Origin: Hydractinia symbiolongicarpus | Taxonomy: Eukaryota; Cnidaria; Hydrozoa; Anthoathecata; Hydractiniidae | NCBI RefSeq assembly: GCF_029227915.1 | Contig: NC_079878.1 | Location: 14,942,001 to 15,006,000 of the forward strand | Length of the DNA stretch: 64,000 bases | Direction: 5' to 3' | In this document: positions 16,075 to 43,189 of the stretch, one piece after another | How positions within the stretch are numbered: position 1 is the stretch's first letter | How the letters are laid out: every line of letters begins with the position of its first letter | Made by a program: the position numbers and the translations under genes | The notes under the pieces: generated by a model | Told to the model about the DNA's origin: nothing | The model's database searches: none | The model's input: only the letters and a program-made list of their open reading frames with translations

Positions 16075-16118
16075 TCTCTTTAATAATACCTGTGAATTTT
16101 TCCACGGGCAACGACTGG
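16075..16118 (+). mobile_element. Helitron unit 1, 44-bp minimal remnant
   Basis: Holds little more than the 5' end (TCTCTTTAATAATACC) joined straight to the short-unit 3' hairpin and CAACGACTGG. It marks the left edge of the array. Confidence 0.7.
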
Positions 16119-16290
16119 TCTATATTATAATACTCGTAAACGGCGTCCCGTAACGGAAACAAGAAATTTTTAAAATGCGCACGAATATCAAAGGCGATAT
16201 ATTTTTATCCACTTTGTTGCCACGGGTAAATTTAAAGGACGAGTGAACGCGACGGGCGACCCTGTGGATTTTTCCACAGGTTAACGACTA
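16119..16290 (+). mobile_element. Helitron unit 2, short non-autonomous
   Basis: Starts TCTATATTATAATACTCG and ends at a GTGGATTTTTCCAC hairpin and GACTA; the final G and the next unit's first bases appear lost. A near copy lies at 26015-26186. Confidence 0.72.
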
Positions 16291-16425
16291 TATTATAATG
16301 CCCGTATACATCTGTATGTCTGTCTGTCACCCAAAATAGTAGCTTGGCTTCGCAATACCGGGAAGCACGTAACGCGGTATAAAAAGGACGGGCGAACCCG
16401 TGGATTTTCCACGGGCTAATGACTA
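16291..16425 (+). mobile_element. Helitron unit 3, short non-autonomous
   Basis: Starts TATTATAATGCCCG (5' bases missing) and ends at the CCCGTGG-type hairpin and GACTA. With unit 2 it forms a block repeated at 26015-26321. Confidence 0.7.
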
Positions 16426-18742
16426 TCTCTTTAATAATAGCCGTATTTTGTCTGTCTCTGCGCAACATGGCGGAGCAAGTAGCGAGAGACACACGGAAAA
16501 TCCCCCCGACCCTCCAGCTTCATTTCGGTTCAACGGCAGACCCCGTTTTTACCGGCTTCGTTTTCCCGCGCTCTGTTAAATTGGGCAGCTGTCAATTTTT
16601 ATAAAAATAATAACCAATCAGCTAGCGCCATAAAATTAATTCTATTGTTATTATATTTGCCGCGATTATTATCGGATTGGCACTTTCAAAATTCTGATAG
16701 CCTCCGTTTTAATGAAAATGCATCAGTATCTTGAATAGGATCCGGAGCAAGACGATTGTTGTGAAGGAAAGTTTCGTAACTATATTTCTTGCTTTTTATA
16801 CCTACTTCTTAGAATAGAAGGCCTTTTTGATACACAGTCTTTTTTAAAACTATTACTACTGTTTTGTTTCTTTACATTTCTTTGTAGTTTCCTTAATATT
16901 ACCTAGCTAGCTAGCTAATCATACAAAAATACATCACTATTTCTAAAGTGTTGTACCTAGCTAGCTATAACTTTTTTTATTTCATACTGCCTACTAGGGA
17001 AACATGAATCTCAACGACTTTCATTTGTTGGAGCATGACTATGCTAATGCACCCCCACAAAATCCTATATTTAATATGAACCTCAACAATCATGTCCCTG
17101 TTCTTCATTTGTTTGAGCATAACTATGCTAATGCACCACCTCAAAATGCTAATTTAAATGCGGATCTCAATAATATTGCCCATCGACTTCCTCGATTGCA
17201 AAATGATGTTGATGTTGCTGGTGCACAAAGGAGGGCTGAGCATGCTTTACGTGAAAGGGCAAGGGCGGCCAATTTAACTTATGAACAAGCTCAACAACGT
17301 AGGGAGCAAGATGCAGTATGGCACAACCAAAGACGTGCTAATGAAAATGTTCATGAAGCTAATGCTCGCCAACAGGTAGATGCACAACGTCATCGTGCGA
17401 ATAGAGAAAATGAATTACCGCAGCAAGCAGCAGTAAGGCGTAGGGCAGAATTATTGCGTCATCGAGCTAGGGTTCCACGTTTCTTAAATTTAGCCAGAAT
17501 TAACAATGTCCTCCTACACATTCTGCAGGTGAGTTTAATACTGTATGTGAGCATTGTGGAGCTATCAAATTTAATAATGAAAATCATTTTAAGTGTTGTC
17601 ACAATGGCAAAGTGGCCCTGCCTGCTATATTACAATTTCCTGCTGAAATACGTGAATTGTTAAGCAACAACTCTGCCCAAGCTAAACAGTTTCGTAAGTA
17701 TATCAGAGTATACAATAATGCATTTAGTTTTGCTTCTTTGTCAGCAAACATTCCACCACCACCAGGTCATGGACCCCCCTGTTTTAGAATATGTGGTCAA
17801 TTATTTCACAGGTATGGTGCTTTATTACCTGCTCAGAATGAAGTACCTAATTTTAGCCAATTGTATATTGTAGAGGCTGCAGCTGCCTGCGTATTGAGAA
17901 TCCGACACATGCTCATTGTAATCGTGAAACAATGCAGATAATTCAAGATGTTCTTAACAGGGATTCTCCATATGCTGCAGCTTATAGAAATATGGCTGAA
18001 GTGGAACGTGAAGAAACAGCCAGAGCAGCAGCAGAAAACAGACAGCCTTCCGTTGTAAGTATGGTAATGCGCGAGGGTAATGATCGCAGAAGGTATAATG
18101 CACCCTTGCATCAGGAAGTTGCTGCCATCTTTGTTGGTAATGATGGAGCACCTCCTGCTGCAAGAGATATTGTTGTTTATCCACGTAATCAACCTTTGCG
18201 GCAAATCCCTCATATATCATGCAATATTGATCCTATGATGTATCCTATTTTATTTCCACGTGGTGACCTTGGTTGGGACCAAAACATGGCCCACGTCAGG
18301 GAGCATGCAACTGGAGTAAGAAATAGGCTAACCCAGTTGGAATATTATATTTACCGCATTGCTATTAGGTGAGAATTTTCTGCCCTTCATCTAGCAGGCA
18401 AATTGTTTCAGCAATTTTTAGTAGATGCATATGTTGAAAGTTGAAGGCCAACGGCTTGCATTTATTAGACGAAATCAAAATCAGCTTCGAGCAGAGTCCT
18501 ACCAAGGACTTCTGGATTACCTCCAAAATGCTGCAGATCAACGTAACTTACAGACAGGTAATGTTGTTGTCTTGCCTTCTACCTTTTCCGGCTCACCCCG
18601 CAACATGCATCAGTTGTATCTTGATGCAATGGCATTGGTTTCAAAAAAAGGTAAGCCAGATTTGTTCTTGACTTTTACATGCAATCCAAAATGGCCAGAA
18701 ATTGTTACTAATTTGTTACCTGGTCAATCTGCTTTCTGCTTG
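16426..18742 (+). mobile_element. Helitron unit 4, 5' part of a Rep-encoding Helitron, 3' end lost
   Basis: Begins TCTCTTTAATAATAGCCG and shares about 130 bases of 5' sequence (CAACATGGCGGAGCAAGTAG and on) with the long non-autonomous units at 26322, 27785 and 32704. A broken Rep coding region fills 17004-18730. The unit stops where the next unit's TCTCT begins at 18743, with no 3' hairpin, so the rest of Rep, the helicase and the 3' end are missing. Confidence 0.78.
17004..18738 (+). pseudogene. Helitron Rep/helicase N-terminal region (Helitron-like N domain), frameshifted
   Basis: In an intact element this protein nicks and transfers Helitron DNA by rolling-circle replication. Visible parts: MNLNDFHLLEHDYANAPPQN, with an 87-bp internal duplication that repeats ANAPPQN; an Arg/Ala/Gln-rich stretch; CEHCGAIKFNNENHFKCCHNG (Cys/His knuckle); FRICGQLFHRYGALLP; LNRDSPYAAAYRNM; STFSGSPRNMHQLYLDAMAL; and PDLFLTFTCNPKWPEI, the classic Helitron motif. 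Frames change at about 17515, 17890 and 18370-18430. The HUH nuclease motif and helicase normally follow FTCNPKWPEI but are absent, because the sequence ends at the next unit. It is inactive. Confidence 0.87.
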
Positions 18743-20021
18743 TCTCTTTAATAATAGCCGTATTCTGTCTGTGTGTCCGCGAGAGCCGCGTCCTGTAACG
18801 GAAACACGAAATTTTTAAAATACGCACCAATATCAAATGCGATATATTTTTATTGACTTTGTTTTGACCGCTCGCGCGTGGAACACCAATCACAACGCCT
18901 GATTCTTTAAAAAAAAAACAAGATTCTCGCGACCAGAAAGAATCCAAGTTCTTCGCGGAACGAAGGCCATTTTGATAATGGTCGTGTTTGTGGTCAGTGT
19001 GTGAGGTTTGTAGGCCTGTTTGACTTTTTTATCTTCTAAAAGCCTTATATATTTGTAATATTTGTTTTCTGTTTGTTTTCAATGTTAGGATAAATATATT
19101 GTCACGTTTTTTAGCCACGTACAGATCTTAAACGCACCAGTTTTAGGATGTTTGGCTAGGAACGAAGATTAGCTAGCTATAGCTACTAGCTAGCTAGAGC
19201 CTCACTTATTGCTATTCTGTATGGTATAAGAGCTTTTTATCCTAGCCAACATTTATTTTTATGTTGAGGCTGTGGCTATTTAGCTAGCTCCTTAAAAAGT
19301 GAAAGTATAAAAATGCAGTTTGGCTACAACAATATTCTTAAGCAATATATAATTTTTATGCTAAATGCAGTTAGCTAGCTAGGTATAGCTACATATTTTA
19401 TTATTTTTCTGCAAACTTTTTCTGCAAATGAAATGGCTGAGCGATTGTTTTGGCTGGACGAGTAACGACAGGCTGTTCCCTGTGTTTTTATTTAAACCGA
19501 AGTTGCAATGAACATTTTTGGAAAAGGGTAATACGCCTTATGCGCCTGTTCAACTGTGTTTAACTGTACTAAGCGGTTAGCCCAGTGTTAAAAACATACT
19601 GTTTTTTGTAAAAGGCTGTTACGCCTATGGGCATGTGCAACACCGTTTACCTGTATATACTAAGGTCAGCCCACCACTGTGACAATTAATTTTTAAAATT
19701 TCTTGGGAATCACGCCTGGACTAACCCCTCAGCCCTGTGTCTGCGAGAAAGTTTTTTTCAAAAGGGTATTATTCCTATACGCTGTACAACACGGTTTAAC
19801 TGTGAAAGTTTTTTTTTGAAAAATATGTTACAGTCGCACACTATAATGGTGCATGCGCTTCAAATGATTAACGACATACTGTATACCTGTACTAAAGCGC
19901 TCCACCTGATCGTGTGGGACAGTTTACGGCTCTTATTAAGCGCTCCACAGAGTGTTCAATGCCGGATCACACCTTTACTTGTGGCTTAACCCGGCGTTTC
20001 GACGCCGGGTTTCCCGGCTAG
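18743..20021 (+). mobile_element. Helitron unit 5, long non-autonomous (1279 bp)
   Basis: Starts TCTCTTTAATAATAGCCG and ends with the CCCGGCG hairpin and CCCGGCTAG. No protein gene. It is nearly identical by eye to unit 6, so the two are a recent tandem duplication with a 1279-bp period. A GCTAGCTA tract lies near 19170-19200. Confidence 0.85.
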
Positions 20022-21259
20022 TCTCTTTAATAATAGCCGTATTCTGTCTGTGTGTCCGCGAGAGCCGCGTCCCGTAACGGAAACACGAAATTTTTAAAAT
20101 ACGCACCAATATCAAATGCGATATATTTTTATTGACTTTGTTTTGACCGCTCGCGCGTGGAACACCATTCACAACGCCTGATTCTTTAAAAAAAAAACAA
20201 GATTTTCGCGACCAGAAAGAATCCAAGATCTTCGCGGAACGAAGGCCATTTTGATAATGGTCGTGTTTGTGGTCAGTGTGTGAGGTTTGTAGGCCTGTTT
20301 GACTTTTTTATCTTCTAAAAGCCTTATATATTTGTAATATTTGTTTTCTGTTTGTTTTCAATGTTAGGATAAATATATTGTCACGTTTTTTAGCCACGTA
20401 CAGATCTTAAACGCACCAGTTTTAGGATGTTTGGCTAGGAACGAAGATTAGCTAGCTATAGCTACTAGCTAGCTAGAGCCTCACTTATTGCTATTCTGTA
20501 TGGTATAAGAGCTTTTTATCCTAGCCAACATTTATTTTTATGTTGAGGCTGTGGCTATTTAGCTAGCTCCTTAAAAAGTGAAAGTATAAAAATGCAGTTT
20601 GGCTACAACAATATTCTTAAGCAATATATAATTTTTATGCTAAATGCAGTTAGCTAGCTAGGTATAGCTACATATTTTATTATTTTTCTGCAAACTTTTT
20701 CTGCAAATGAAATGGCTGAGCGATTGTTTTGGCTGGACGAGTAACGACAGGCTGTTCCCTGTGTTTTTATTTAAACCGAAGTTGCAATGAACATTTTTGG
20801 AAAAGGGTAATACGCCTTATGCGCCTGTTCAACTGTGTTTAACTGTACTAAGCGGTTAGCCCAGTGTTAAAAACAGACTGTTTTTTGTAAAAGGCTGTTA
20901 CGCCTATGGGCATGTGCAACACCGTTTACCTGTATATACTAAGGTCAGCCCACCACTGTGACAATTAATTTTTAAACTTTCTTGGGAATCACGCCTGGAC
21001 TAACCCCTCAGCCCTGTGTCTGCGAGAAAGTTTTTTTCAAAAGGGTATTATTCCTATACGCTGTACAACACGGTTTAACTGTGAAAGTTTTTTTTTGAAA
21101 AATATGTTACAGTCGCACACTATAATGGTGTATGCGCTTCAAATGATTAACGACATACTGTATACCTGTACTAAAGTGCTCCACCTGATCGTGTGGGACA
21201 GTTTACTGCTCTTATTAAGCGCTCCACAGAGTGTTCAATGCCGGATCACACCTTTACTT

Positions 21260-21495
21260 TACAAAATTAGACAAATGAAATGAAGTTTAATTAAAATAAT
21301 AATTTAGCTCTGATCTAAGTATTCAAGTGAGATTCGGCTTCCGTAAATTTCCTGCTTTAAAGACCCATTGTGAAGGCCAAAATAGTGAATAATAGTGCTA
21401 AAGGTGTTAGGGGAGTGGTGGTGGGCACTTGAATACTTAGATCAGAGCTAAATTATTATTTTAATTAAACTTCATTTCATTTGTCTAATTTTGTA
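21260..21495. repeat. Long inverted repeat (hairpin) at the DIRS left end
   Basis: About 72-base arms (21260-21331 and 21424-21495), beginning ACAAAATTAGACAAATGAAA and its complement, around a spacer of about 90 bases. The inner part of the left arm (GAGATTCGGCTTCCGTAAAT) matches the element's right end in reverse, as in the split repeats of DIRS elements. Confidence 0.85.
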
Positions 21496-21721
21496 AATAA
21501 TAATTTAGCCTCTGATCGTAAGTATTCAAATGAGATTTCAAAGCCACCTATTTTGGATTCAACAAACAGTTTAGGAAAAACTGGGCAAGGACCAGTATAT
21601 GATTAAACAGAACTACATATTTATGGTTTGTCTGTTATGACTCCTGGCAATGCCACATTGTACCATAACGGTACATGTCTATTACATATATATATACAAA
21701 ATCTAACGCAAGCAAATGTGT

Positions 21722-22527
21722 TCATAAACATTTAAGAAGTTCGTTCCCAAAGTTCTTGCTTATGGGCAATTTGTAATGTTTTGCAAACGTGCTAGTGCCT
21801 CTCCAGCCTGCCGCCTTTGCGATTGTCTTCATAGGTACGCCTATGTTCTCTGCCTTGCTGGTAGACGCACTTCTTGTAGAATGGGTGCTGAACGTCTTAA
21901 TATCGATGCCAGCCAAGCCTAAGAAAGTTTTAACGTACTTTGCAATGGTGGTGATTCCGATAGGTTTATGGGGATATGCATAGGAGAGAAGTAGTTCCCT
22001 TGGTTGGTTTTCGAGGTTCTCTCGTATAAGGTCTGTCCTCCTCAGGTATTCATCTAGGCAGTGGACTATACATATCCGGTTATCGAGGTGGTACTTCTCG
22101 AATTGCAGAGGTTCCTGATGTTTGCCTGGTTTTGTTGTCTTCATGATTGTAGAGATGTAGAAAGTGTACATATCTGAAGATCGATGAAAAAGTTAACCTT
22201 TAGGGCACCTATTGTCTGGGCTCTCTGGCCACTCAGGAGGCACAACAAGGTGGCTAGTTTTTTCGTTAGTAACTCTAACTCCAGGTGCTGGTTACCAGGC
22301 AAGGTTGTCATATAGTTTAATATTACATCAGGGTCATATATCACAGTGTGTTTTGGTAGGGAAGGACGTAGCTTGAAAACTCCCTTGATAAGTCTGCTAA
22401 CGTCCTCGTTCTTACCAAAGCTTGTTCCTGCATCCTTTGGTAATACAGCTGACAGGGCTGACCTTGCCGCTGCGATGTAACCATAACTTGCCTTTTCTAC
22501 GTGGAAAAGGAAAGCAAGGAAGTCCAT
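21722..22527 (-). pseudogene. DIRS tyrosine recombinase, one frameshift
   Basis: This enzyme would insert the DNA copy by strand exchange through a covalent tyrosine intermediate. The N-terminal part (22527-22141) holds ARSALSAVLPKDAGTSFGK and LLSGQRAQTIGAL, with the first catalytic Arg. The C-terminal part (22171-21722) holds STHSTRSASTSKA (H-x-x-R box), AAGWRGTSTFAKHY with the nucleophile Tyr, and a natural stop. All R-H-R-Y residues are present. The halves are in different frames, broken at about 22150-22170. Such elements sometimes move with helper proteins. Confidence 0.88.
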
Positions 22528-22573
22528 ACCTTGTTTATGACTAGCCCCATAAGGTTCTGGGATTTTTTCACTT

Positions 22574-23377
22574 TTACAAAACTTCAGCCATTTCCTTAAA
22601 TAGTTCAGAATCCCCTGTGAACCATGGTTGGTTAGGCCAGTCCGGAACTACCAGGATACCTACTGCCTTATCACTATGGATCTTTTGAATTACCTGGGGA
22701 AGGCAGGCGAAGGGTGGAAAGGCATAAAACGAGATATTGTGCCAATCCTCAGTAAACGAGTTTACTCCGATGCAGTTGGGATCAGGTCGATATGAGAAGA
22801 AGGCAGGTAACTGCGTGTTTATTCTACTCGCGAAGAGGTCTGTTTCTGGACGGAAGTCCAGTTCGTTCAGCGCATAGCGGAATGTTGATTTGTTTAACAT
22901 CCATTCTGTTCTTGTCTCCTGTTGTCGCGACTCTCTGTCTGCTTCTACGTTAAGAATGCCAGGGAGATGTGTAGCGACTATCCAATTATTTTTGCTTATT
23001 GCCCATTCCCAAATGCTATGTGTAATCTTATCCATTGGGATAGATTTTACGCCACCCATTTTGTTTACACAGGCTACTGCTGAAGTGTTATCCATCTTTA
23101 GCAATATGTTAGTGTTTGCAGTATGGTTGCAAAGAGCCTGTAGTCCAAAGAATGCTGCCATTAGTTCTAGGACATTTATGTGGTGTTCCTGCTCCAGAGA
23201 TGAAAACTCACCCCCTGTGTGGGTTTGTGTCATTGACGCTCCCCAACCTCTTGTTGAGGCATCCGTGGATATAATGATCTGAGGGTTGCCGCGAACTATT
23301 GGGGCTATGCTACCCCATAAATTATTCTTCCACCAAGATATGTCACCCATGGCAGTAGGGGTTAATGTGATCTGCAC
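22574..23377 (-). CDS. DIRS RNase H domain and downstream domain
   Basis: RNase H would remove the RNA strand after reverse transcription. IIISTDASTRGWGAS (first Asp), then LEQEHHINVLELMAAFFGLQ (Glu), LLKMDNTSAVACVNKMGG (Asp) and NVEADRESR (last Asp) give a complete catalytic set. After it comes DLFASRINTQLPAFFSYRPD, AFPPFACLPQVIQKI and ILVVPDWPNQPWF, a conserved tail found in DIRS polyproteins. It belongs to the RT protein upstream but is one frame off after a long A-run, so the first Met at 23377 is probably not the true start. Confidence 0.85.
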   Translation of the reverse strand: MQITLTPTAMGDISWWKNNLWGSIAPIVRGNPQIIISTDASTRGWGASMTQTHTGGEFSSLEQEHHINVLELMAAFFGLQALCNHTANTNILLKMDNTSAVACVNKMGGVKSIPMDKITHSIWEWAISKNNWIVATHLPGILNVEADRESRQQETRTEWMLNKSTFRYALNELDFRPETDLFASRINTQLPAFFSYRPDPNCIGVNSFTEDWHNISFYAFPPFACLPQVIQKIHSDKAVGILVVPDWPNQPWFTGDSELFKEMAEVL

Positions 23378-23378
23378 A

Positions 23379-24412
23379 TCAAAGTTGCCGGCGCTCTTTT
23401 TTTTTTTTTTTTAAGGACTCAATTTTTAGTCTTTCGGTAGATCTGTAGTAGAGTCTACCGTGTGGTACCCCAATAAGGCTGCTGGTAAACTTACCAATTA
23501 ATCGCGCTAGAGTTCTTATTGTTATCTTCTCTCTCTGTGTCACTGCTTGACACAGATCGATTATGGCTGCCTTCTTTTTGGGGGTGAGAGCGACGGTCAT
23601 ATTTACTGTATCGATGATGAATCCAAGGAATTCCAAAACTTGTTTTGGTTCGAACTCGGATTTGTCTGGGTGGACCGTAAATCCCATTGAATCTAACAAA
23701 ACAACGGTTTTGTGTACGTTATTGCAGCACTGTTGTTTACTGACGTTCATAGTGATCAAGTCGTCAATGTAGTCAGCAATGGTGACCTGTTCCTTCCTTA
23801 ATTTAGATAAGGGTGGTTTCATTATCTTGGTGAATTTACGAGGTCCTTCTGTATAGCCAAAGGGGAGTACCAGGAACACGTATACCTTACCCTCAAGTTC
23901 GAATTTTAGGAGCTTCTGGCTTTCTTTGTGTATTGGTATGCTACAGTATGCATCCTTGATATCAAGTTTTGCCAGATACATGTCCTTTTGGATTAATCGA
24001 AGAATGGACGTTAAGGTTTGCATCTTAAACTTTCTTTTCTCAATGTGTACATTGAGTTTTTTGAGGTTTAGGATGAGCCTGAACCCACCGTCTGATTTCT
24101 CGGTGACGAATATGGGTGAGATAAAGTCGCCTGGTTCGCGACTGCTTAACCTTATTACACCTTTCCCCAAAAGGCTTTGTATTTCTTCGTCAATGAAGAG
24201 TTTCTTTTTTCTATCTAGGGGGTATGTCCGATATGGGGTTTGGGGCATCTCGTTTACTGGAATTTGCAAACCAGACACTGTCTGGAGGATCTCCCTATCG
24301 GTAGTTATGTCTTTCCACTGATCAAAATGAAACCTGAGAGAACCGGGTTTAAAATATTTGACTTTTGACCTTAGAAAAGCTTTTAGGGTCTCAGTATCGC
24401 TTACCTCAGGGA
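23379..24412 (-). pseudogene. DIRS reverse transcriptase
   Basis: Copies the element RNA into DNA. Motifs: FISPIFVTEKSDGGFRLILN, LNVHIEKRKFKMQTL, AKLDIKDAYCSIPI (first Asp), FLVLPFGYTEGPRKFTKIMK, IADYIDDLITM (catalytic DD) and EFEPKQVLEFLGFIID, ending in RLIGKFTSS. The frame is open without a Met from about 24412 (LRFHFDQWKDITTDREILQ), overlapping the gag end, so translation probably depends on frameshifting or re-initiation. A pure A-run (23395-23413 region) changes frame just before RNase H; the unit may be dead, or the run length may be a sequencing uncertainty. Confidence 0.88.
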
Positions 24413-25552
24413 TTAATTTTTCCTGTTGGTGTGCTTGGAAAAGTTGCTGTTGTGGCTGCGGTACGGTTTCTTTGACTGGGATTGCCCATTGTGGTAGTTG
24501 GCCCTCTTTTGGGGCTTGTAAGAGGGCCCTTTGTTTGATGAAGGCTCGAATCTTCTTTTTTGGCCTCTTTCCAGGAGTGATTTGAGCTGGTTCTCCTTTT
24601 TCAGCTTCTCAAGCCTTTCGCAGACGGAGGAACCAAACAGCCATTCGGAATCCTCTTCCACTTCTGTAGCTAAGGCTACGTACTCTTTTGCCAAGGAAGG
24701 CTTAATTAAGTCTCGCCTGACCTGATTTAGCAGCTGGGAGGTCTTACCAGCGAGGGTCATGGCGTCCTTAAGGTCGTTTAACGGACCCTTTGTGTCTGCG
24801 TTGGCATCACCGGATTTCTCCACCAACGTAGATGAAGCTTTCAGAAGCATAGCAACCGACGCTGAGTGCATGTTTTGGATGTCCTGCATCTTAACGTCAG
24901 TGGACCTGTGAAAATTGGAAAGTGTTTTCCAAATTTCGGTGTTTGTTCTCTTTGGGAGTAGAAAGTTGCAGTTTGATGGAATTGCTGCCGTTTCTAACTT
25001 CCGCTTGAGAACATCACCCTTGAGCCTTTTTTGCCAAAACACTTTGGCAGCACATGCCACTGATGACGTGACTTCTGGTCCAGAGGCCTTGCTGTCCTCT
25101 TCATAGTCATCAGTGGACTGTTGCCAGTACTCTTGGGCTGGCTCTTTGGTACCCTTTTTAGAATGCTCTGGTGCTTCGTCTTTGGAAGAAGGCGATTCTG
25201 AGCGCGTGGATCTAAACCAGAGGTTTGAACCAGTGATAGATATTCTTTCTTCCTCCTGTTGGGTACTGGATTTGCTAGCCAGAGTTCCATCTGGAACATT
25301 GGGGCTAGGATTAAGACTAGACCGGGTCCCCTCTGGGACAATAGGGTCTGTCAGGTGGCTAAGTCTTGCCATAAAGGTGTTCATGCTGGCCAGTGTGTCG
25401 TGTATTCGACTTAGTTCGGCCTTTTGTCGCTCGGATACGATGGATACGACTTGGTCTACGATACCTGTGCAGTCCACGGGGATAGGAACAGGGTGTTCGG
25501 GGTCCTGTAAGGTGAAGTCATGGTCGCTATTTTTGCTGTGCTGTGGGAGCAT
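24413..25552 (-). CDS. DIRS gag-like protein (379 aa)
   Basis: The first gene of the element, intact from MLPQHSKNSD to its stop. It is Ser/Glu/Lys-rich and hydrophilic in the middle (SESPSSKDEAPEHSKKG), with a conserved C-terminal part (LAKEYVALATEVEEDSEW, FGSSVCERLEKLKKENQLKS) and a basic tail (SKKPYRSHNSNFSKHTN) suited to RNA binding. No CCHC knuckle is seen. The position ahead of RT and the overlap with it support a structural gag role. Confidence 0.72.
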   Translation of the reverse strand: MLPQHSKNSDHDFTLQDPEHPVPIPVDCTGIVDQVVSIVSERQKAELSRIHDTLASMNTFMARLSHLTDPIVPEGTRSSLNPSPNVPDGTLASKSSTQQEEERISITGSNLWFRSTRSESPSSKDEAPEHSKKGTKEPAQEYWQQSTDDYEEDSKASGPEVTSSVACAAKVFWQKRLKGDVLKRKLETAAIPSNCNFLLPKRTNTEIWKTLSNFHRSTDVKMQDIQNMHSASVAMLLKASSTLVEKSGDANADTKGPLNDLKDAMTLAGKTSQLLNQVRRDLIKPSLAKEYVALATEVEEDSEWLFGSSVCERLEKLKKENQLKSLLERGQKRRFEPSSNKGPSYKPQKRANYHNGQSQSKKPYRSHNSNFSKHTNRKN

Positions 25553-25841
25553 GGGATCGTCGCTTTCTTGTTACATTATTCTTAAACCGAATAATTAGTA
25601 AAAAGAATACACACTAGAGGAATTATCCTAACCTAACACCAGCACTATAAACTCATTTAGTTTATATCACTTAGCTATGTATCAATACAAAAGATACCTA
25701 AACGTGTCTACTCGAGCACTTGGCACTTCGCGTCCGTTCACATTTGTTTACGAAATCGAAAGAGGAGATTTACGGAAGCCGAATCTCATTTGAATACTTA
25801 CGATCAGAGGCTAAATTATTATTGTGGCTTAACCCGGCTAG

Positions 25842-26014
25842 TCTCTTTAATAATACCCGTCGTCTGTCTGTCTCTGCGCGGACCCCCCGCTGAGTTACAC
25901 AATGATGTTACGGAAACACGAATATCAAATGCGATATACTTTTATTCGCTTTGTTGCGACGGGTAAATATAAAGGACGGGCGAACCCGTGAATTATTCCA
26001 CGGGCAACGACTGG
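25842..26014 (+). mobile_element. Helitron unit 7, 173-bp non-autonomous
   Basis: Starts TCTCTTTAATAATACCCG and contains GCGGACCCCCCGCTGAGTTA and TTACGGAAACACGAATATCA. It ends with the short-unit hairpin and CAACGACTGG. Confidence 0.83.
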
Positions 26015-26186
26015 TCTATATTATAATACTCGTAAACGGTGTCCCGTAACGGAAGCACGAAATTTTTAAAATGCGCACGAATATCAAAGGCGATATATTT
26101 TTATCCACTTTGTTGCGACGGGTAAATTTAAAGGACGAGTGAACGCGACGGGCGACCCCGTGGATTTTTCCACGGGTTAACGACTA
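26015..26186 (+). mobile_element. Helitron unit 8, near copy of unit 2
   Basis: TCTATATTATAATACTCG start and a TTAACGACTA end joined to TATTATAATG, repeating the same damaged junction as units 2/3. Confidence 0.78.
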
Positions 26187-26321
26187 TATTATAATGCCCG
26201 TATACATCTGTATGTCTGTCTGTCACGCAAAATGGTAGCTTGGCTTCGCAATACCGGGAAGCACGTAACGCGGTATAAAAACGACGGGCGAACCCGTGGA
26301 TTTTCCACGGCTAACGACTAG
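26187..26321 (+). mobile_element. Helitron unit 9, near copy of unit 3
   Basis: Matches 16291-16425 apart from a few base changes, and ends CTAACGACTAG before the next TCTCT. Confidence 0.78.
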
Positions 26322-27662: not shown

Positions 27663-27784
27663 TCTATAATAATAGCCGTCGTCTGTCTGTTCGTGCGTCT
27701 GTTTGTCTTTTTGTTACGGAAACACGAAATGCAATATTTAAAGGACGGGCGACCCCGTGGATTTTTCCGCGGGTTAACGTCTAG
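27663..27784 (+). mobile_element. Helitron unit 11, 122-bp non-autonomous
   Basis: TCTATAATAATAGCCGTC start, internal deletion compared with the 177-bp units, short-unit hairpin and AACGTCTAG end. Confidence 0.8.
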
Positions 27785-29706
27785 TCTCTATAATAATAGC
27801 CGTATTCCGTCTGTCTGTCTCTGCGCAACATGGCGGAGCGAGTAGCGAGACCCGCCGAAAATCCCCGCGGCCCTGCAGCTTTATTTCGAATCCCTGGCAG
27901 ACCCCGTTTTTTTACCGGCCTTGCTTTGCCGCTCATTGCAATAAACCAATCACAAGGCTCCATTTTCACTAATGACCAATCCAAGTGCTTCGCGGCCTCA
28001 ACATGTCGACGGGAGGAAACATGCTACCCCTACGAAGGCCATTTTGGTTTGGAAGTGATGGTGTGAAGTTTGTAGGTTTCCTTTCAATCCTCCTTATTTC
28101 TTATGAGTACTTTTTATCCTATAGGATTATTTAGTTTGTTTTCACATGTTAAGGTGAATATTTCATCACGTTTTCTAGCTACGTATAAATCTTAAACAAA
28201 CCAATTTTAAGTTTTTGGCTAGCTAGAAAACGTACATTTTAAGGCAGCTAGCTATAGCTAGCTTTATTTATTCCTATACTTTTAAAGTTTTTATTCAGTT
28301 TGGTATATTATTATTTATTTTTATGTTGAAGTTGGGTCTACCTAGCTAGCTCCTCTTTTAGCTACATCCTGCTAAAAAGTGAAAGTAGCCAAATGCAGTT
28401 TGGCTGCAAGTGAAAGTAGCCAAATGCAGTTTGGCTGCAACACAATTCTTAACAATTCTTATGCTAAATGCAGTTGGCAGCGGCCACTTTTATTACTGAT
28501 TTAAAAATTTATTATTCAAAATAAAGTTGCTGAGTAATTTTTTAAACTGAACCGGGTTAATGCCAGGCTGTTCACTGATTTCTTTCAAAACCGAAGCGAT
28601 AAGGATTTTTGGAAAATGGTATTACCCCTATGCTCATGTATGACACGATTCACCTGTTAAGCGCTCAGCCTGGTGTTAACGACGGGCTGTTTCCTGTGTT
28701 TTTATTTAAACCGTTGTGATAAATTTTATTTGGAAAATTTTATTACGCCTGTTACTCATGTATGACACAATTTACATGTTAAGTGCTCCGCCTGGTGTTA
28801 ATGACGTGCTTTTTCCGTGTTTTTATTTAATCCGTTGTGATAAAGTTTTTTTTACCTGCAATAAACATTCAACCTGGTGTTAACAACAGGGTGTTTTGTG
28901 TGTTTTTTATTTAAATTGAAGTTGCGATAAGTTTTTTTGGGAAAAGGCTATTATGGCTATAACGCATGTGTGACACCATATACCTGTACTAAGTGCTCAG
29001 TCCGGTGTCATGATTAATTTGTTAAGGTTTACTGAAACGTACTCCGCAAAATAAAATAATATTGACTATTTTCTTTTCTTATGACGGGGTAACAACAGGT
29101 TGTAAACTGTGTTTTTATTTTGGTTAAAGTTGCAGTAAAGTTATATATATACATATATTTTAAAAAGTACATTACAACCGAAACACTATAATGTTGTGTG
29201 AGCTTTACTCAATTCACGGCATATTCTGCATACCTGTACTAGAGCACTCAAATTATGGATTTTTATTAGTTTTTTTATGGGGTAACGACTGGATTTTTCC
29301 TGTGTTTTAAGTTAAACCGAAATTGCAGTAAAGTTTTTTATGAAAAGGGTATTATGCGTTCTCGGCCCACTGTCATGATTAAGTTTTGAACTTTTAAGGA
29401 AACTTATTCCGCAAAATAAAATAATATTGCCCGATTGTTTTTGCTATGGCGGAGTAACAACGGTTTGTAAACTGTTTTAATTCAGCTTTTGTTGCGGGAA
29501 ATTATTTTTTTTTAAATATCTTACAGTCGCAACACTGCAATGGTGTGTGCCCTCCACTTGATTTACGACATACTGCATACCCGTACTAAAGCGCTCCACC
29601 TCACCGGGTTGCACAGTTTGCGGTTCTTATTAAGCGCTCCTCAAGGCGTTCAACAACAGTTACTTGTGGCTTAACCCGGCGTCGAAACGCCGGGTCTCCC
29701 GGCTAG
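27785..29706 (+). mobile_element. Helitron unit 12, long non-autonomous (1922 bp)
   Basis: The longest element without coding sequence. Its 5' 280 bases match units 4, 10 and 19. It has a doubled AAGTAGCCAAATGCAGTTTG segment (28378-28440) and at least four degenerate repeats of about 120 bases (28540-29040). The 3' hairpin is CCCGGCGTCGAAACGCCGGG, then TCTCCCGGCTAG. Confidence 0.85.
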
Positions 29707-30592
29707 TCTCTATTATAATAGCCGTATTCCGTCTGTCTGTCTCTGCGCGGACCCCCCGCTGAGTTAGGAAATGATGTTACGGAAACACGAATATCAAATG
29801 CAATACATTTTTATCCACTTTGCCGCGACGAGTAAATATGAAGGACGGGCGAACCCGTCGATTTTTTCACGGGCAACGACTAGTCTCTTTAATAATAGCC
29901 GTATTCCGTCTGTCTGTCTCTGCGCGGACCCCCCGCTGAGTTAGAAAATCATGTTATGGAAACACGAATATCAAATGCGATATATTTTTATCCACTTTGT
30001 TGCGGCGGGTTAATATAAAGGACGGGCGATCCCGTGGATTTTTCCACGGTCAACGACTAGTCTCTATTATAATAGCCGTATTCCGTCTGTCTGTCTCTGC
30101 GCGGACCCCCCGCTGAGTTAGAAAATGATGTTACGGAAACACGAATATCAAATGCGATATATTTTTATCCATTTTGCCGCGACGAGTTAATATAAAGGAC
30201 GGGCGAACCCGTGGATTATTTCCCGGGTAACAACTAGTCTCTATTATAATAGCCGTATTCTGTCTGTCTGTCTCTGCGCGGACCCCCCGCTGAGTTATAA
30301 AATGATGTTACAGAAACACGAATATCAAATGCGATATATTTTTATCCACTTTGCCGCGACGGGTAAATTTAAAGGACGGGCGAACCCGTGGATTCTTCCA
30401 CGGGCTAACGACTAGTCTCTATAATAATAGCCGTATTCCGTCTGTCTGTCTCTGCGCTGACCCCCCGCTGAGTTAGAAAATAATGTTACGGAAACACGAA
30501 TATCAAATCCGATATATTTTTATCCACTTTGTTACGACGAGTAAATATAAAGGACGAGCGAACCCATGGATTTTTCCACGGGTAACGACTAT
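29707..30592 (+). mobile_element. Helitron units 13-17, five consecutive short units of about 177 bp
   Basis: Borders at 29707-29883, 29884-30060, 30061-30237, 30238-30415 and 30416-30592: lengths 177, 177, 177, 178 and 177. Each starts TCTCTWTWATAATAGCCG, contains GCGGACCCCCCGCTGAGTTA (GCGCTGACC in the last) and ends at a CCCGTGG-type hairpin plus CTAG; the last has lost the G. They differ from one another by scattered single-base changes. Confidence 0.9.
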
Positions 30593-30933
30593 TTATAATA
30601 ATATGCTTTATGAAAAATATTAGGGTACGATATTGGGTTAAAAACAATCAGTCCATAAAAACAGAAATAGAAAATAATAACCAGTCTGATTAGAAATTTT
30701 AATATTGTTATACAAAAAAGCGTGTAATAGATTTCAAATTAAATACAGCGAGTTGATTTACTTTGTCTATGCCTCATGTTGGCTGCTATAAAAATGGAAT
30801 GGCTGCTATAAAGATGGAAAATTTAAGACTTTAATGCACCCGGTCAATGACCAGGACGTTGTGTTTAGTATCTTGGTACTTTGCGCTCGCGAAGTGTTAA
30901 TCCATGCGAAAGAAGTGTCCGCTGTCAGACTAG
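30593..30933 (+). mobile_element. Atypical Helitron-array segment
   Basis: Starts with a decayed 5' end (TTTATAATAATATGC) and ends GTCAGACTAG before the next unit's TCTCT, but has no 3' hairpin and unique AT-rich content, with a doubled GGCTGCTATAAA (30780-30815). It could be a diverged unit or captured host DNA. Confidence 0.5.
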
Positions 30934-32703
30934 TCTCTATAATAATAGCCGTCGTCTGTCTGTCTGTTCAAAAGGGTTACCGATATTCCTTTGATCTTTC
31001 CGCGAATTTTTAGAAAACAGGGGGTTGTTTAATGGAAAACTTTATAATTAATTGAACTAAACTCAAGAAATTAATTTATTACCTTAATTAATTTAATTAC
31101 TTTAATTTATTGCCATAAGTAAGAAAAGTAAATTTAGTGATAAAAATGAATGCATTATTTTAATACGCCATTTTTAATAATAATTACCCCCGTGACCTCA
31201 ATCGCCGTTTTCGCTCAGAAGCTACAGAAAACAAATGGGACAGTTTACTGATAGTTTTACTGACTTTGTTTTGACCGCTCGCACATAATACACCAATCAA
31301 AACACTTGATTGTTTAAAAAACCAATCCAAGACTTTCGCGGCCTGGGCATGCCAACGAAGAAACATGAGGACCGAAACATGATGGCCATTTTTGTTTTTA
31401 AAGTAATGGTGGGTCAGTGCTGTTTGTAAGTCTGTTTCAATTTTTGTCTACTATAAGCTTTTTATTTTCGTAATATTGTTTTTTTGTATGTTCTAAAATG
31501 TTAATATAAATACATTGTCACGTTTTTAGTCACGTACAGATCTTAAACGCGCCAGTTTTTGATTTTTGGCTAGGAACGAAAATTTGTTTTTGGAAAAATT
31601 TTGGAGGCTAGCTAGCTAGAACCTTACTTATTACTATTCTGTATGGTATAACAGCTTTTATCCTTCCCACCATTTATTTTTGTGTTGAGACTGTAGCCAT
31701 TTAGCTAGCTCCTATCTTTGGCTAAAAAGTGAGAGTATAAAAATGCAGTTTGGCTACAACAATATTCTTAAACAAAAAGTGTTATACTAAATGCAGTTAG
31801 CTAGGTACCTACATCTGTTTTTATTTTTTCCTGAAAACTTTTTGTGCAAATAAAATGACTGACAGATTATTTTAGCTGAACCGGTAATGACAGACTGTTC
31901 CCTGTGTTTTCATTAAAACCGAAGTTGCAATGAAGTTTTTTTGGAAATGGGGTATTACGCCTATACGCCTGTTCAACTCTGTTTTACTATACTAAGCGGT
32001 TAGCCCAGGGTTAACAACATACTGTTGTTTTTGGTAAAGGCTGTTACGCTTATACGCATGTACAACATGGTTTTCCTGTACTAAGGGGTCAACCCAATGT
32101 GACAATTCATTTTTAAACTTTCTCGGTAATCACGTCTGTACGAATGTGCAACAATGTTTACTTGGACTAACCGCTCAGCCCTGTTGTGTTTTTTTAAACA
32201 GAGTCTATGAGAAAGTTTTTTCCAAAGGCGTATTATTCCTATACGCCTGTGCAACACGGTTTAACTGTAGTAAGCGCTTGGCCCAGTGTCACGATAAATT
32301 TTTTAACTTTCACAAGAACTTATTCTGCAAAATAAAATAATACTGACTGATTGTTTTTGCTATGATGGGGTACCGACTGTTGTTTGTAAACTGTGTTTTT
32401 ATTTCAGCTATCGTTGTGGGGAATGTTTTTTGAAAAATATGTTACAGTCGCAAGACTATAATGATGTATGCGCTTCACTTAATTTACGACATACTGTATA
32501 CCTGTACTAAAGTGCTCCACCTGGTCGTGTGGCACAGTTTACGGCTCTTATTAAGCGCTCCACAGAGTGTTCAACGTCAGGTCACACCTTGACTTTGGCC
32601 TACCCTGGCGTTTTGACACCGGGGTAAGCCAAATGCGACACGCGTTTAAGTGGTATAAAAAGGATGTGCGGACCCGTGGATTTTTCCACGGGCCATCGAC
32701 TAG
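30934..32703 (+). mobile_element. Helitron unit 18, long non-autonomous with two 3' hairpins
   Basis: TCTCTATAATAATAGCCGTC start, then AAAAGGGTTACCGATATTCC. The main body matches units 5/6. It reaches the long-unit 3' region (CTGGCGTTTTGACACCGGGG), then runs on through ATAAAAAGGATGTGCGG to the short-unit hairpin and CCATCGACTAG. It appears to have read through its own end into a neighbouring short unit's 3' end. Confidence 0.82.
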
Positions 32704-34271
32704 TCTCTATTATAATAGCCGTATTTTGTCTGTCTCTGCGCAACATGGCGGAGCAAGTAGCGAGACATACGGAAAATCCCCCCGGCCCTGTAGCTTTATT
32801 TCGAATCCCCGGCAGACCCCGTTTTTTTACCGGCCTTGCTTTGCCGCTCATTGTAATAAACCAATCACGAGGCTCCATTTTCACTAATGACCAATCCAAG
32901 TGCTTCGCGGCCTCAACATGCCGACGGGAGGAAACATGCTACCCCTACGAAGGCCATTTTGGTTTAGAAGTGATGGTGTGAAGTTTGTAGGTTTCCTTTC
33001 CATCCTCCTTATTTCTTCTGACTACTTTTTATCCTATAGGATTATTTAGTTTGTTTTCACATGTTAAGGTGAATATTTCTTCACGTTTTCTAGCTACGTA
33101 TAAATCTTAAATAAACCAATTTTAAGTTTTTGGCTAGCTACAAAACGTACATTTTGAGGCAGCTAGCTATAGCTAGCTTTATTTATTCCTATACTTTTAA
33201 AGTTTTTATTGAGTTTGGTATATTATTATTTATTTTTATGTTGAAGTTGGGTCTACCTAGCTAGCTCCTCTTTTAGCTACATCCTGCTAAATAGTGAAAG
33301 TAGCCAAATGCAGTTTGGCTGCAAGTGAAAGTAGCCAAATGCAGTTTGGCTGCAACACAATTCTTAACAATTCTTATGCTAAATGGAGTTGGCAGCGGCC
33401 ACTTTTATTACTGATTTAAAAATTTATTATGCAAAATAAAATTGCTGAGTAATTTTTTAAACTGAACCGGGTTAATGCCAGCAGGCTGTTCACTGATTTC
33501 TTTTAAAACCAAAGCGATAAGGATTTTTGGAAAATGGTATTACCCCTATGCTCATGTATGACACGATTCACCTGTTAAGCGCTCAGCCTGGTGTTAACGA
33601 CGGGCTGTTTCCTGTGTTTTTATTTAAACCGTTGTGATAAATTTTATTTGGAAAATTTTATTACGCCTGTTACTCATGTATGACACAATTTACATGTTAA
33701 GTGCTCATCCTGGTGTTAATTACGTGCTTTTTCCGTGTTTTTATTTAATCCGTTGTGATAAAGTTTTTTTACCTGCAATAAACATTCAACCTGGTGTTAA
33801 CAACAGGGTGTTTTGTGTGTTTTTTATTTAAATTGAAGTTGCGATAAGTTTTTTTGGGAAAAGGCTATTATGGCTATAACGCATGTGTGACACCATTTAC
33901 CTGTACTAAGTGCTCAGTCCGATGTCATGATTAATTTGTTAAGGTTTACTGAAACGTACTCCGCAAAATAAAATAAAATTGACCAATTGTTTTTCCTATG
34001 ACGGGGTAACGAATGGTTGTAAATTGTGTTTTTATTTTGGCTAAAGTTACAGTAGAGTTATATTTTCAAAAATACACTACAGCCGAAACACTATAGTGTT
34101 GTGTGCGCTTTACTTGATTAACGACATACTGCGTACCTGTACTAAAGCGCTCCACCTGACCGTGTAGTACAGTTTACGGCTCTTATTAAGCGCTCCACAT
34201 AGTGTTCAATGGCGGGTCACACCTTGACTTGTGGCTTACCCCGGCGTTTCGACGCCGGGTTTCCCGGCTAG
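32704..34271 (+). mobile_element. Helitron unit 19, long non-autonomous (1568 bp)
   Basis: Close to unit 12 over most of its length, including the doubled AGTAGCCAAATGCAGTTTGG, but shorter in the repeat region. Ends CCCGGCGTTTCGACGCCGGG plus TTTCCCGGCTAG. Confidence 0.86.
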
Positions 34272-34448
34272 TCTCTATTATAATAGCCGTATTCCGTCTG
34301 TCTGTCTCTGCGCGGACCCCCCGCTGAGTTAGAGAATGATGTTACGGAAACACGAATATCAAATGCGATATATTTTTATCCACTTTGTTACGACGGGTAA
34401 ATATAAAGGACGGGCGAACCCGTGGATTTTTCCACGGGCAACGACTAG
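34272..34448 (+). mobile_element. Helitron unit 20, 177-bp short unit
   Basis: Same layout and length as units 13-17, with the short-unit hairpin and CAACGACTAG. Confidence 0.88.
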
Positions 34449-35390
34449 TCTATATAATAATAGCCGTATTTTGTGTGTTCAAAAGGGTTACCGATATTCC
34501 TTTGATCTTTCCGCAAATTTTTAGAACCCAGGGGGTTGCTTAATTGGAAATCTTATAATTTATCAAAATAAATTACAGAAATTAATTTATTTCCTTACAT
34601 AATTTAATTAATTTAAATACGCCATTTTTAATAATAATTACCCCCGTGACTTCAATCGCCGTTTTCGCTCAGGAGCTACAGAAAACAAATGGGACAGTTT
34701 ACTGATAGTTTTACTGACTTTGTTTTAACCGCTCGCACATAGTACACCAATCAAAACGCTTGATTGTTTGAAAAACCAATCCAAGACTTTCGCGGCCTAG
34801 TAACGCCGACGAAGAAACATGAGGACCGAAACATGATGGCCATTTTAGTTTTTAGAAGAAGGTCAGTTCAGTGCTGTTTGTAAGTCTGTTTCACATTTTT
34901 GTCTTCTATAAGCTTTTTATTTTCGTAACATTGGTTCTTTGTATGTTCTAAAATGTTGTCATGTTTTTAGTCACGTACAGATCTTAAACGCACCAGTTTT
35001 AGGATTTTTGGCTAGGAACGAATATTCTTTAGCTAATAGCCTTACCTTTTTACTAATTTTGTTTGATATAGGAGGTTTTTCTCCAACCCAACATTTATTT
35101 TTATATCGAGGATGTAGCCACTTAGCTAGCTCATATATTTACCTTAAAAGTGAGAGTATAAAAATTCAGTTTGGCTATCAATATGGCAATATTCTCAGCG
35201 ATAAGTCTTATGCCAAATGCAGTTTAGCTAGGTGGCTACAACTTTAATTATTTTCCTTAAAACTTTTTTTGCAAATAAAATAGCTGAGCAATTGCTTTAG
35301 CTGGTGGGGTAACGACAGGCTGTTCCCTGTGTTGTCATTTTAACCGAAGTTAATAAAGTTTTTTTGGAGAAGGGGTACAGTTAAACATAG
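34449..35390 (+). mobile_element. Helitron unit 21, 5' part only
   Basis: TCTATATAATAATAGCCG start, then the same AAAAGGGTTACCGATATTCC and body as unit 18. Similarity is lost near 35390, and no 3' hairpin is present. Confidence 0.7.
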
Positions 35391-35740
35391 CAGATTGCAT
35401 GAAAGCAAGATAAATATTCCAGCGATACTTAATTTATATTCCGCTACGATTTTTTAAAAGAACTTCGTAGAAATGTGTAAACACAGCTAAGAGTGCTTCA
35501 ATTCTCAGCGGGCGGTGCGCATGCTTCGACTTCAGCGGTAGCGATGCATAAACGACTGGTCTGTGGCCTGCAAAATACGGGTTAAGACACGCACAACATG
35601 ATAAGAAGCAGGAAATTTCGTCGGGGAAAAAAAGAAGAATTAAGGCACGGGGGAGCGGGTAAGTGACGATATTCGGTCAGATCGCATGTCACTTTTGGTC
35701 GCACAAGCCGAAACCAATACACTCCTCTCCTCCGGGACGA
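35391..35740. other. Unmatched segment inside the Helitron array
   Basis: About 350 bases with no match to other units, somewhat more GC-rich (GCGGGCGGTGCGCATGCTTC). It contains CATAAACGACTGGTCTG, which resembles a decayed unit junction. Origin unknown. Confidence 0.4.
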
Positions 35741-37090
35741 GTGTAATTACCCCCGTGATCTGAATCGTCCATTCGGCTCGGTATCCACAGAAAACAAATA
35801 GGACACTTTTACTGACAGTTTTATTACTTTATTTTGACCGTTCCCGCGTAGTATACCAATCAAAACGCCTAATTCTTTGAAACACCAATCCAAGATTTTT
35901 GCGCCCTGGAGATGCCAACGAAGGAACATGATGACGAAGGCCATTTTGGTTTTGAAAGTGGTCGTGGCGAGTGCTGGGTTTGAAGGTCTGTTTGACTTTA
36001 TTTGTCTTCTAAAAGCTTTTTATTTTGTGATATTTGTTATCTTTATGTTCTTATAAATATATTTTCACGTTTTTTAGCCATCTTAAACGAGCCATCTTTC
36101 GAGGCGATTTTTGGCTAGGAACGAAGATTTTTTAGCATCATTCTACAGCCAGCTAGCTATAGCTACCCTTACTTATTACCATTCAGTTTGGTATAACAGC
36201 TTTTTAACATAACCAATATTTATTTTTATGTCGAAGTTGTGTTTATCTAGCTCTTCTTACCTACCTCTGGGTAAAAAGTGAATGCTAAATTAATGCAGTT
36301 AGGCAGCTACCACTTTTATTACTGTTATGAAAACTTATGCTGCAAAATAAAAAAGAGTATTTTTTTAACTGAACAGGATAACGGCTTTAACTTTCCTGAG
36401 TTTTTTTAAAAATGGTGTTACGCCTATACTCATGTGCGACACGGTTTACCTGTACTAAGCGCTTAGTACAGTGTTAACAACGGCTATTTCCTGTGTTTCT
36501 GTTTAACCGAAGTTGCAATAACGTTTTTTCCAGAAAAAGCTATTACACCTATATGGATAGGTCACATTGTTTACCTGTACTGAGCACTCAGCTTGGAGTA
36601 ACATTTCTTTTGAACTTTCACCGGGAACATTCTCCAAAAAATAAAATTCTGGTGTTTAACGCCGAGTATGCTATGAAGGGGTAACAACGGGTTGTAAACT
36701 GTGCTAAAAGGGTATATATTAAACAAAAACACATGTCCAACACGGTTTACCTGTACGAAGTGCTCAATTCAGTGTTAACGACGGGCTGTTTCCTGTGATT
36801 CTGTTAAACTGAAGTTGCGATAAAGTTTTTTTTTTTTGGAAAAAGGTATTACACCTAAATGAATGCGCGACATTGTTTACCTATGCTAAGGTAAACAATT
36901 TCAGGCTGCCCGGAGCAACATTCATTTTTGAACTTTCACCAACATATGCATACCTGTACTAAAGCGATCCATCTGATCGTGTGGCACAGTTTACGGCTCT
37001 TATTAAGCGCTCCACAGAGTGTTGAAAACTCCGAGTCACATCTTGACTTGTGGCTTACCCTGGCGTTTCGACGCCGGGTTTCCCGGCTAG
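35741..37090 (+). mobile_element. Helitron unit 22, 5'-truncated, right end of the array
   Basis: Begins inside the body (TAATTACCCCCGTGATCTGA, as in units 18 and 21) and ends CTGGCGTTTCGACGCCGGG, then TTTCCCGGCTAG at 37090. The next base is T, the host side of the A^T site. Confidence 0.8.
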
Positions 37091-39970: not shown

Positions 39971-40111
39971 CGGTTATCTCCTCTTATCCAACCGTTCATC
40001 TGCAATAACGTCATCTACAATAAACAGCACCTAACAACCTCCCAGTTCCCTACTAAAAACCCAATAACTTCAAACAACCTATCACCAGGCTCAATCAAAA
40101 ATACACAATCA

Positions 40112-41093: not shown

Positions 41094-41095
41094 AT

Positions 41096-41589: not shown

Positions 41590-41599
41590 AAGTCTTACT

Positions 41600-43180: not shown

Positions 43181-43189
43181 TTTTTCAAA

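What the first reader, a model, noticed from the sequence alone, without database searches (positions are those of the whole stretch)
16075..37090. A 21-kb head-to-tail Helitron array occupying one A^T site
About 22 Helitron units in the same orientation are joined CTAG|TCTC with no host DNA between them, and the array as a whole lies between A (16074) and T (37091). This suggests growth from one insertion, by rolling-circle read-through, repeated insertion at the CTAG|T junction, or unequal exchange. Short Helitron-related tandem arrays are known; one this long with mixed unit types would be informative.
Basis: partly seen in the sequence, partly recalled or inferred. Interest (0 to 1): 0.82.

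Follow-up and report, generated by a model that had tools for sequence, protein, structure and literature searches.

The report
Helitrons stacked at one site
A 21-kb stretch of this genome is a pile of jumping genes (Helitrons) lined up end to end in one direction, apparently because new copies tend to land against the end of copies already there, and over a thousand such joins are found across the genome.

Summary
The array is real. Between A (16074) and T (37091) lie 17 clear Helitron starts, all on +; 14 of 16 internal ones follow CTAG. Degenerate borders raise the total to 22 segments. One unit carries 341 bp of captured host DNA; a retroelement sits inside another. Genome-wide, 1061 starts follow CTAG and 1312 follow A; about 0.03 head-to-tail pairs are expected by chance. 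Most neighbours tested are not closest relatives. Unit 30416-30933 has a donor on another contig: its dead 3' end was bypassed and host DNA carried along to the next CTAG. So the array probably grew mainly by repeated separate insertions against existing Helitron ends. Host A plus the element's first T recreate the A^T target, so growth on the 5' side is likely, but this polarity is inferred from little. One pair (18743/20022) looks like a local duplication. The empty site could not be tested. Head-to-tail Helitrons are known; the length, mixture and genome-wide scale are what is new here.

The parts
16075..16425 (+). Composite Helitron C1: remnant 16075-16118, sub-units 16119-16288 and 16289-16425, with dead internal ends (CTGG, CTA); its own last end reads CTA
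   Evidence: same sub-units as 25842-26321 at 96.5 and 97.1%
16426..18742 (+). 5' part of a protein-coding Helitron with broken Rep reading-frame pieces; cut off inside the Rep gene, 8-nt filler TCTGCTTG, then directly TCTC of the next unit
   Evidence: PF14214 E=9.2e-30; 19 genomic places match its last 600 bases up to base 592 and stop there
18743..20021 (+). H-type unit (H1), 1279 bp, 3' hairpin type A and CTAG
20022..25841 (+). H-type unit (H2), interrupted by a retroelement; 3' hairpin partly deleted
   Evidence: 99.27% to H1 over 1238 bp
21260..25832 (-). Inserted DIRS-like retroelement (reverse transcriptase and tyrosine recombinase ORFs); boundaries approximate
   Evidence: PF00078 1.9e-21, PF00589 6e-7, breakpoints
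25842..26321 (+). Composite unit C2: 177-type + 171-bp + 137-bp segments with dead internal ends CTGG and CTA
26322..27662 (+). M-type unit, type A hairpin, CTAG
27663..27784 (+). 122-bp unit, start TCTATAATAATAG, type B hairpin, CTAG
27785..29706 (+). M-type unit, 1922 bp; a unit in L012 is 97.9% identical over its full length
29707..30415 (+). Four 177/178-bp units in a row (29707, 29884, 30061, 30238), each with type B hairpin and CTAG
30416..30933 (+). 177-type unit with dead end CTAT plus captured host DNA, ending at a new CTAG
   Evidence: Donor locus L038 on contig C10, 509 of 518 columns identical
30593..30933 (+). Captured host repeat DNA (341 bp); no 3' hairpin
   Evidence: 41 matches genome-wide including itself, 40 of 139 candidates scored; fold z-score +1.04
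30934..32703 (+). X-type unit, type B end
32704..34271 (+). M-type unit, 1568 bp, type A end
   Evidence: 94.55% to 27785 over 1468 bp
34272..34448 (+). 177-type unit, closest to the 177-type majority sequence (2 differences)
34449..37090 (+). X-type unit (start TCTATATAAT) with an internally repeated body; type A end CTAG next to host T at 37091
16074..16074 (.). Host A on the left of the array
37091..37091 (.). Host T on the right of the array

Best explanation
This is a nest of canonical Helitrons (5'-TC, 3' hairpin + CTAG, A^T site). It grew mainly by repeated, separate transpositions, each new element landing exactly against the end of one already there. Shown: exact end-to-end joins, mixed unit types, closer relatives at other loci for most units that could be tested, and one unit that came from a known donor locus by bypassing its dead 3' end. 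Inferred: growth is mostly on the 5' (left) side, because host A plus the first T of TCTC recreate the preferred A^T target, so a canonical insertion there gives CTAG|TCTC and keeps the outer A and T. Also inferred: the frequency of such joins means Helitron ends attract insertion, perhaps through transposase bound to them. Side processes: composites with dead internal ends probably move as one unit, and the 18743/20022 pair may be a local duplication.
For: Junctions and outer A/T. 1061 exact CTAG-preceded starts, 1312 A-preceded, 32 CTBG-preceded genome-wide; rough chance expectation 0.03 pairs. In the five-unit 177-bp run neighbours are no more alike than shuffled orders (0.9 of orders as good or better). 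7 of 7 window 177-type units have a match among 21 outside unit records (some from overlapping loci) that is closer than their best array mate. M unit 27785 is 97.9% to the L012 M unit, yet the 177 units that follow each are only 90.3% alike, so M|177 probably arose twice. In two other H|H pairs (L053, L054; the only ones fetched) the members are 24 and 35 substitutions apart, while L053b is 13 from L050 and L054a is 11 from L051. Donor L038 for 30416-30933; its left neighbour is 89.8% to array unit 30238, so only the second unit plus flank was copied. For polarity: unit 30416, which ends in CTAG without a hairpin, has a neighbour on its right. Helraiser inserts at AT in all but 46 of 1,751 mapped cases, with TT, AC and AA the most prominent others (PMC4778049, passages).
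Against: H1 and H2 share one substitution and lack a stretch present in all 43 other long matches listed, as local duplication predicts (but only 40 of 3549 candidates were scored, and H2 is 3 substitutions from L047 and 6 from H1). L023 holds the same start and join twice, 1625 bp apart, 98.5% over the 198 bp compared: a local duplication. L011 has three 124-bp units whose neighbours are 96.8 and 91.9% alike, not compared with outside copies. Junction counts include copies multiplied by segmental duplication and by composites moving as one. Divergence from majority sequence is not ordered along the array in either direction, though at least in one case it is inherited from the donor. The L038 dimer has T, not A, on its left, and about 33 host bp seem missing there. 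The truncated unit 16426 has an end-joining scar, so it says little about polarity. The empty site and the dispersal of the composite could not be tested.
Confidence: 0.72

Rival explanations
1. Repeated insertion, but on the 3' side or at internal joins: new elements enter at CTAG^T (a G^T target) because the 3' hairpin or CTAG is recognised.
For: Gives the same joins; Du et al. 2008 left this open for a maize pair in which some lines hold only the left element (PMC2267711, passages).
Against: G^T is not among the prominent alternative Helraiser targets. Unit 30416, without a 3' hairpin, has a neighbour on its right.
Confidence: 0.25
2. Rolling-circle read-through or multimeric circles insert several linked units in one event.
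For: Helraiser makes head-to-tail circles. The composite 25842-26321 recurs at 16075-16425 with the same dead internal ends. L016, L018 and L020 look like copies of one composite. Arrays in bat and silkworm are attributed to bypassed termination (PMC4067079, passage).
Against: Many neighbours differ in type, and most units tested have closer relatives elsewhere. 13 of 17 units end in hairpin plus CTAG (my reading), unlike plant arrays with many 5' ends and one 3' end (PMC12628747, passage).
Confidence: 0.12
3. Unequal exchange or local tandem duplication, as in satellite DNA.
For: H1/H2 99.27% with a shared missing stretch; the 1625-bp repeat in L023.
Against: No neighbour effect in the 177 run; M|177 blocks not co-inherited; 27785 is closer to L012 than to 32704.
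Confidence: 0.08
4. Assembly artefact: scattered repeats wrongly joined.
For: Repeats are hard to assemble; contig C1 shows repeated spacing of places 3.6-3.7 Mb apart.
Against: 1061 such joins over the genome, a dimer inside a recognisable host repeat, no N in the window; most units differ enough from neighbours to be told apart. No reads were seen.
Confidence: 0.04

Closest known systems
[quoted passage not shown] 2008, PMC2267711; passages read)
   Same: CTAG directly joined to TC, unlike elements side by side, read as consecutive insertion; both the G^T and the A^T model were already proposed there
   Different: Two elements there; here 17 clear starts in one array and 1061 joins genome-wide
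Helraiser/Helibat of Myotis (PMC4778049, PMC5876387; passages read)
   Same: TC start, hairpin, CTAG, A^T insertion, bypass of the 3' end with capture of flanking DNA
   Different: Reconstructed element in cell culture; here donor and product of one bypass are both natural loci
Tandem arrays in Myotis and Bombyx, and bat and maize Helitrons directly next to one another (cited in PMC4067079, passage; primary papers not seen)
   Same: Helitrons in tandem
   Different: The cited cause for the arrays is bypassed termination; here most neighbours tested look like separate insertions
Centromeric Helitron arrays of plants (Xiong et al. 2016, as described in PMC12628747; primary paper not seen)
   Same: Tandem head-to-tail organisation
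   Different: There many arrays have multiple 5' ends and one 3' end and units are truncated; here 13 of 17 units have their own hairpin and CTAG
Maize Helitrons with pseudo 3' termini (PMC3288121, passages read)
   Same: Internal 3' ends without intact CTAG, proposed to derive from nested elements
   Different: There described within single elements; here such a composite sits twice in one array

Membership tests
Canonical Helitron (Helitron1) | 5'-TC terminus | tested here: met
   17 starts
Canonical Helitron (Helitron1) | 3' hairpin followed by CTAG (CTRR) | tested here: met
   One type A end z=-2.41, one type B end z=-3.91; CTAG before 14 of 16 internal clean starts. Not met by units 16426 and 30416 (no hairpin) and damaged in 20022 and 16075
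Canonical Helitron (Helitron1) | Insertion between A and T without target duplication | tested here: met
   A 16074 / T 37091; 1312 A-preceded starts; of five H copies with an exact start, L048, L050, L051, L052 follow A and L047 follows CTAG. No empty site seen
Canonical Helitron (Helitron1) | Rep (HUH) and helicase coded by the autonomous partner | tested here: inconclusive
   Broken Rep pieces with Helitron_like_N in 16426-18742, cut off early. 19 other places match 587-592 bases at 82-99%; their helicase part was not looked at
Rolling-circle array of truncated Helitrons (plant centromere type) | Many 5' ends with a single 3' end | tested here: not met
   13 of 17 units end in hairpin plus CTAG (my reading)
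Tandem duplication / satellite array | Neighbouring units are closest relatives | tested here: not met
   exceptions H1/H2 and, in another locus, L023

The most novel reading that the evidence does not exclude
This Helitron family inserts preferentially at its own resident termini, so resident copies act as landing pads: about 44% of the intact starts counted (1061 of 2405 preceded by A, CTAG or CTBG; starts with other bases in front not counted, copied joins not removed) directly follow another element's CTAG. The site would be self-renewing, since each insertion at A^TCTC restores A^TCTC, and would confine part of the family to nests.
Probability: 0.5. Interest if true: 0.72.

Novelty: new member of a known kind. 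Interest (0 to 1): 0.52.

Why it matters
How Helitron tandem arrays arise (bypassed termination, circles, or consecutive insertion) was left open for a two-element maize case in 2008. A genome with over a thousand exact joins, arrays of distinguishable units, and a donor-and-product pair for 3' bypass makes that question testable with statistics instead of single cases. If ends attract insertion, it would be a self-targeting habit for a eukaryotic rolling-circle transposon.

Tried and rejected
Age order from divergence to the majority sequence: not monotonic along the array, then dropped, because unit 30416 has 9 differences from the 177 majority but only 1 in that part from its donor, so such differences can be inherited.

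CTTG as a natural premature end (as seen for Helraiser): weakened. Two genomic copies read on with other sequence at that point (L055, L057; the continuation of a third fetched piece, L056, was not shown), and the window has an 8-nt filler repeating the preceding bases. It looks like an end-joining scar that abuts an exact TCTC. Genome-wide CTBG joins: 32, of which 15 CTTG, 12 CTGG, 5 CTCG, not a clear excess of CTTG.

Block duplication of M|177 (27785+29707 versus 32704+34272): disfavoured by L012.

Short global alignments with many gaps were not used: random 144-mers reach 76% on average and 90.1% at most with that aligner.

Exact-pattern scans of viral contigs and genome contigs: 0 matches. 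PDB searches of two flank ORFs: nothing below E=0.29. Species not identified.

Full report
What is there. The window is G000:C4:14942001-15006000 of a 480.9-Mb genome in 76 contigs. From 16075 to 37090 lie Helitron units all in one direction: 17 starts on + and none on - at up to 5 mismatches to the 20-base start. Of the 16 internal starts, 14 follow CTAG (12 as CTAG|TCTC, two as CTAG|TCTA); 16426 follows ACTA and 18743 follows CTTG. Four degenerate unit borders (CTGG|TCTA at 16119 and 26015; CTA|TATTATAAT near 16289 and 26185) and the border of captured DNA at 30593 bring the segments to 22. The outer bases are A at 16074 and T at 37091.

Unit types. By sequence there are 177-bp units; M units (26322, 27785, 32704), whose 5' ends resemble the Rep-bearing unit 16426; H units (18743, 20022); X units (30934, 34449); a 122-bp unit; and a composite (the letters are mine). 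Two 3' hairpin types, both before CTAG, fold better than shuffles in the one example of each tested (z -2.41 and -3.91). By my reading, 13 of 17 units end in a hairpin plus CTAG. Unit 16426 carries broken pieces of a Rep gene (PF14214, E=9.2e-30). Nineteen other genomic places match its last 600 bases up to base 592 and stop there (40 of 81 candidates scored); two copies read there continue with different sequence, and the window has an 8-nt filler. About 21260-25832 is a retroelement with reverse transcriptase and tyrosine recombinase ORFs on the minus strand; I call it DIRS-like from general knowledge of that gene combination.

Genome-wide scale. The exact 22-base join occurs 514 + 547 = 1061 times, the backward control 0 times. 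Starts with A in front: 688 + 624 = 1312. CTBG in front: 32. Starts with other bases in front were not counted. If 2405 insertions chose AT sites at random, about 0.03 head-to-tail pairs would be expected, using this window's AT frequency. The number of independent events is below 1061, because segmental duplications and composites copy joins. The 100 listed joins (contig C1 and part of C2, about 9% of the total) form 78 clusters: 62 of one join, 11 of two, 4 of three, 1 of four. The window holds 11 joins of the exact pattern, so it is an outlier among those listed; larger arrays elsewhere are not excluded.

A donor found. The 341 bp after the 177-type unit at 30416 match 41 genomic stretches (40 of 139 candidates scored): itself, one at 98% (L038, contig C10), and 39 at 70-85%. 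In L038 the same unit with the same dead end (CTAT) is followed by the same 341 bp, and host repeat sequence continues past the CTAG where the array copy stops. All six other copies of that host repeat that were fetched align on both sides of the L038 dimer, one of them (L044) only weakly upstream. The array copy 30416-30933 and the donor agree in 509 of 518 columns. So a Helitron started at its own TC, passed its dead end, stopped at the next CTAG, and the product sits in the array directly before the TCTC of 30934. The donor is itself a dimer, but its left unit is only 89.8% to the array's left neighbour 30238, so the copied stretch began at the inner TC. The donor dimer has T rather than A on its left and seems to lack about 33 bp of host sequence there.

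Most neighbours tested are not sisters. In the five-unit 177-bp run, mean neighbour difference is 15.25 against 14.4 for all orders. For all seven 177-type units the best of 21 outside unit records (some overlapping loci counted twice) is closer than the best array mate. The M unit in L012 is 97.9% to 27785, but the following 177 units are 90.3% alike. In a 12-unit H tree, the tandem pairs at L053 and L054 are not sisters (24 and 35 substitutions apart; L053b is 13 from L050, support 81/95; L054a is 11 from L051, support 97/98). These were the only two other H pairs fetched.

Results the other way. H1/H2 in the window differ by 6 substitutions, share one change (support 96/91), and lack a stretch present in all 43 other long matches listed; only 40 of 3549 candidates were scored, and H2 is 3 substitutions from L047, so two insertions from one deletion-bearing source are also possible. 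Among 20 junction loci read on C1 (L009-L028, the first listed), L023 repeats the same start and join 1625 bp apart, a local duplication, and L011 has 124-bp neighbours 96.8 and 91.9% alike that were not compared with outside copies.

Composites. 25842-26321 recurs at 16075-16425 with both dead internal ends, at 96.5 and 97.1% over the two sub-units; the first segment of the left copy has lost most of its middle. The 5' ends of the next units (16426, 26322) look less alike than 26322 and 27785 do (97.7%), but these comparisons carry many gaps and weigh little. The composite probably moves as one element; whether it is dispersed could not be searched.

Mechanism. Repeated separate insertion explains the exact joins, the mixed types and the outside relatives. 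Where insertion happens is inferred. On the left end, host A and the element's T form A^T, the target of nearly all Helraiser insertions (all but 46 of 1,751; PMC4778049, passages). Insertion there gives CTAG|TCTC and renews the site. Du et al. 2008 already set out this model and the alternative G^T model for a maize pair (PMC2267711, passages). One unit without a 3' hairpin inside the array (30416) fits the 5'-side model better; the other candidate (16426) carries a repair scar and says little. An attraction of insertions to resident ends is needed to explain the frequency; its cause (bound transposase, local hopping) is speculation.

Known context. Tandem Helitron arrays are reported for bat and silkworm and adjacent elements for bat and maize (PMC4067079, passage); plant arrays with many 5' ends and one 3' end are described in a review (PMC12628747, passage); pseudo 3' termini in maize (PMC3288121, passages); one three-copy tandem in a fungus (PMC5148889, passages). 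Seven paper searches were answered; their listings and the passages read showed no array like this one, but two papers looked up were not held and the primary bat, silkworm and plant-array papers were not seen. I make no claim that it is the longest.

Limits. No reads, other individuals or species were available; the empty site was not tested; the genome tool answered 6 of 58 calls; sampled loci are the first listed, not a random sample.

Noticed in passing
21260-25832: Retroelement with reverse transcriptase and tyrosine recombinase (Phage_integrase) ORFs, minus strand, inside H unit 20022; the unit's 3' hairpin next to it is partly lost.
   Followed up: partly
40001-50000: Strong strand asymmetry (GC skew -0.483 at 40001-42000, -0.284 at 46001-48000, +0.365 at 48001-50000). 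Seven ORFs tested between 40349 and 52609 reach no curated Pfam cut-off, and two have no PDB match below E 0.29.
   Followed up: partly
3975-4548: 67-bp tandem repeat, 8.6 copies at 97%, which also matches itself in inverted orientation at about 68-70%.
   Followed up: no
1513-2517: Open reading frame with a reverse transcriptase domain (PF00078, 8.2e-33).
   Followed up: no
Genome contig C1 (G000), not in the window: Several Helitron places recur at offsets of 3.6-3.7 Mb (for example 12756711/16380677 and 13837327/17520722), which suggests a large duplication or haplotype copies in the assembly.
   Followed up: no
34449-37090: The last unit holds two diverged copies of the X-type body in one element (34635-35033 and 35744-36136, 75.7%); the start and end scans found no boundary between them.
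   Followed up: no
L016, L018, L020: Three loci with the same layout (CTAC|TCTA start, then a CTAG join 1378-1433 bp later; the second join 92 bp on is seen in L016 and L018), apparently dispersed copies of one composite Helitron.
   Followed up: no
L023 3517-5340: A start and a CTAG join recur 1625 bp apart in tandem: a local duplication within a Helitron locus.
   Followed up: no
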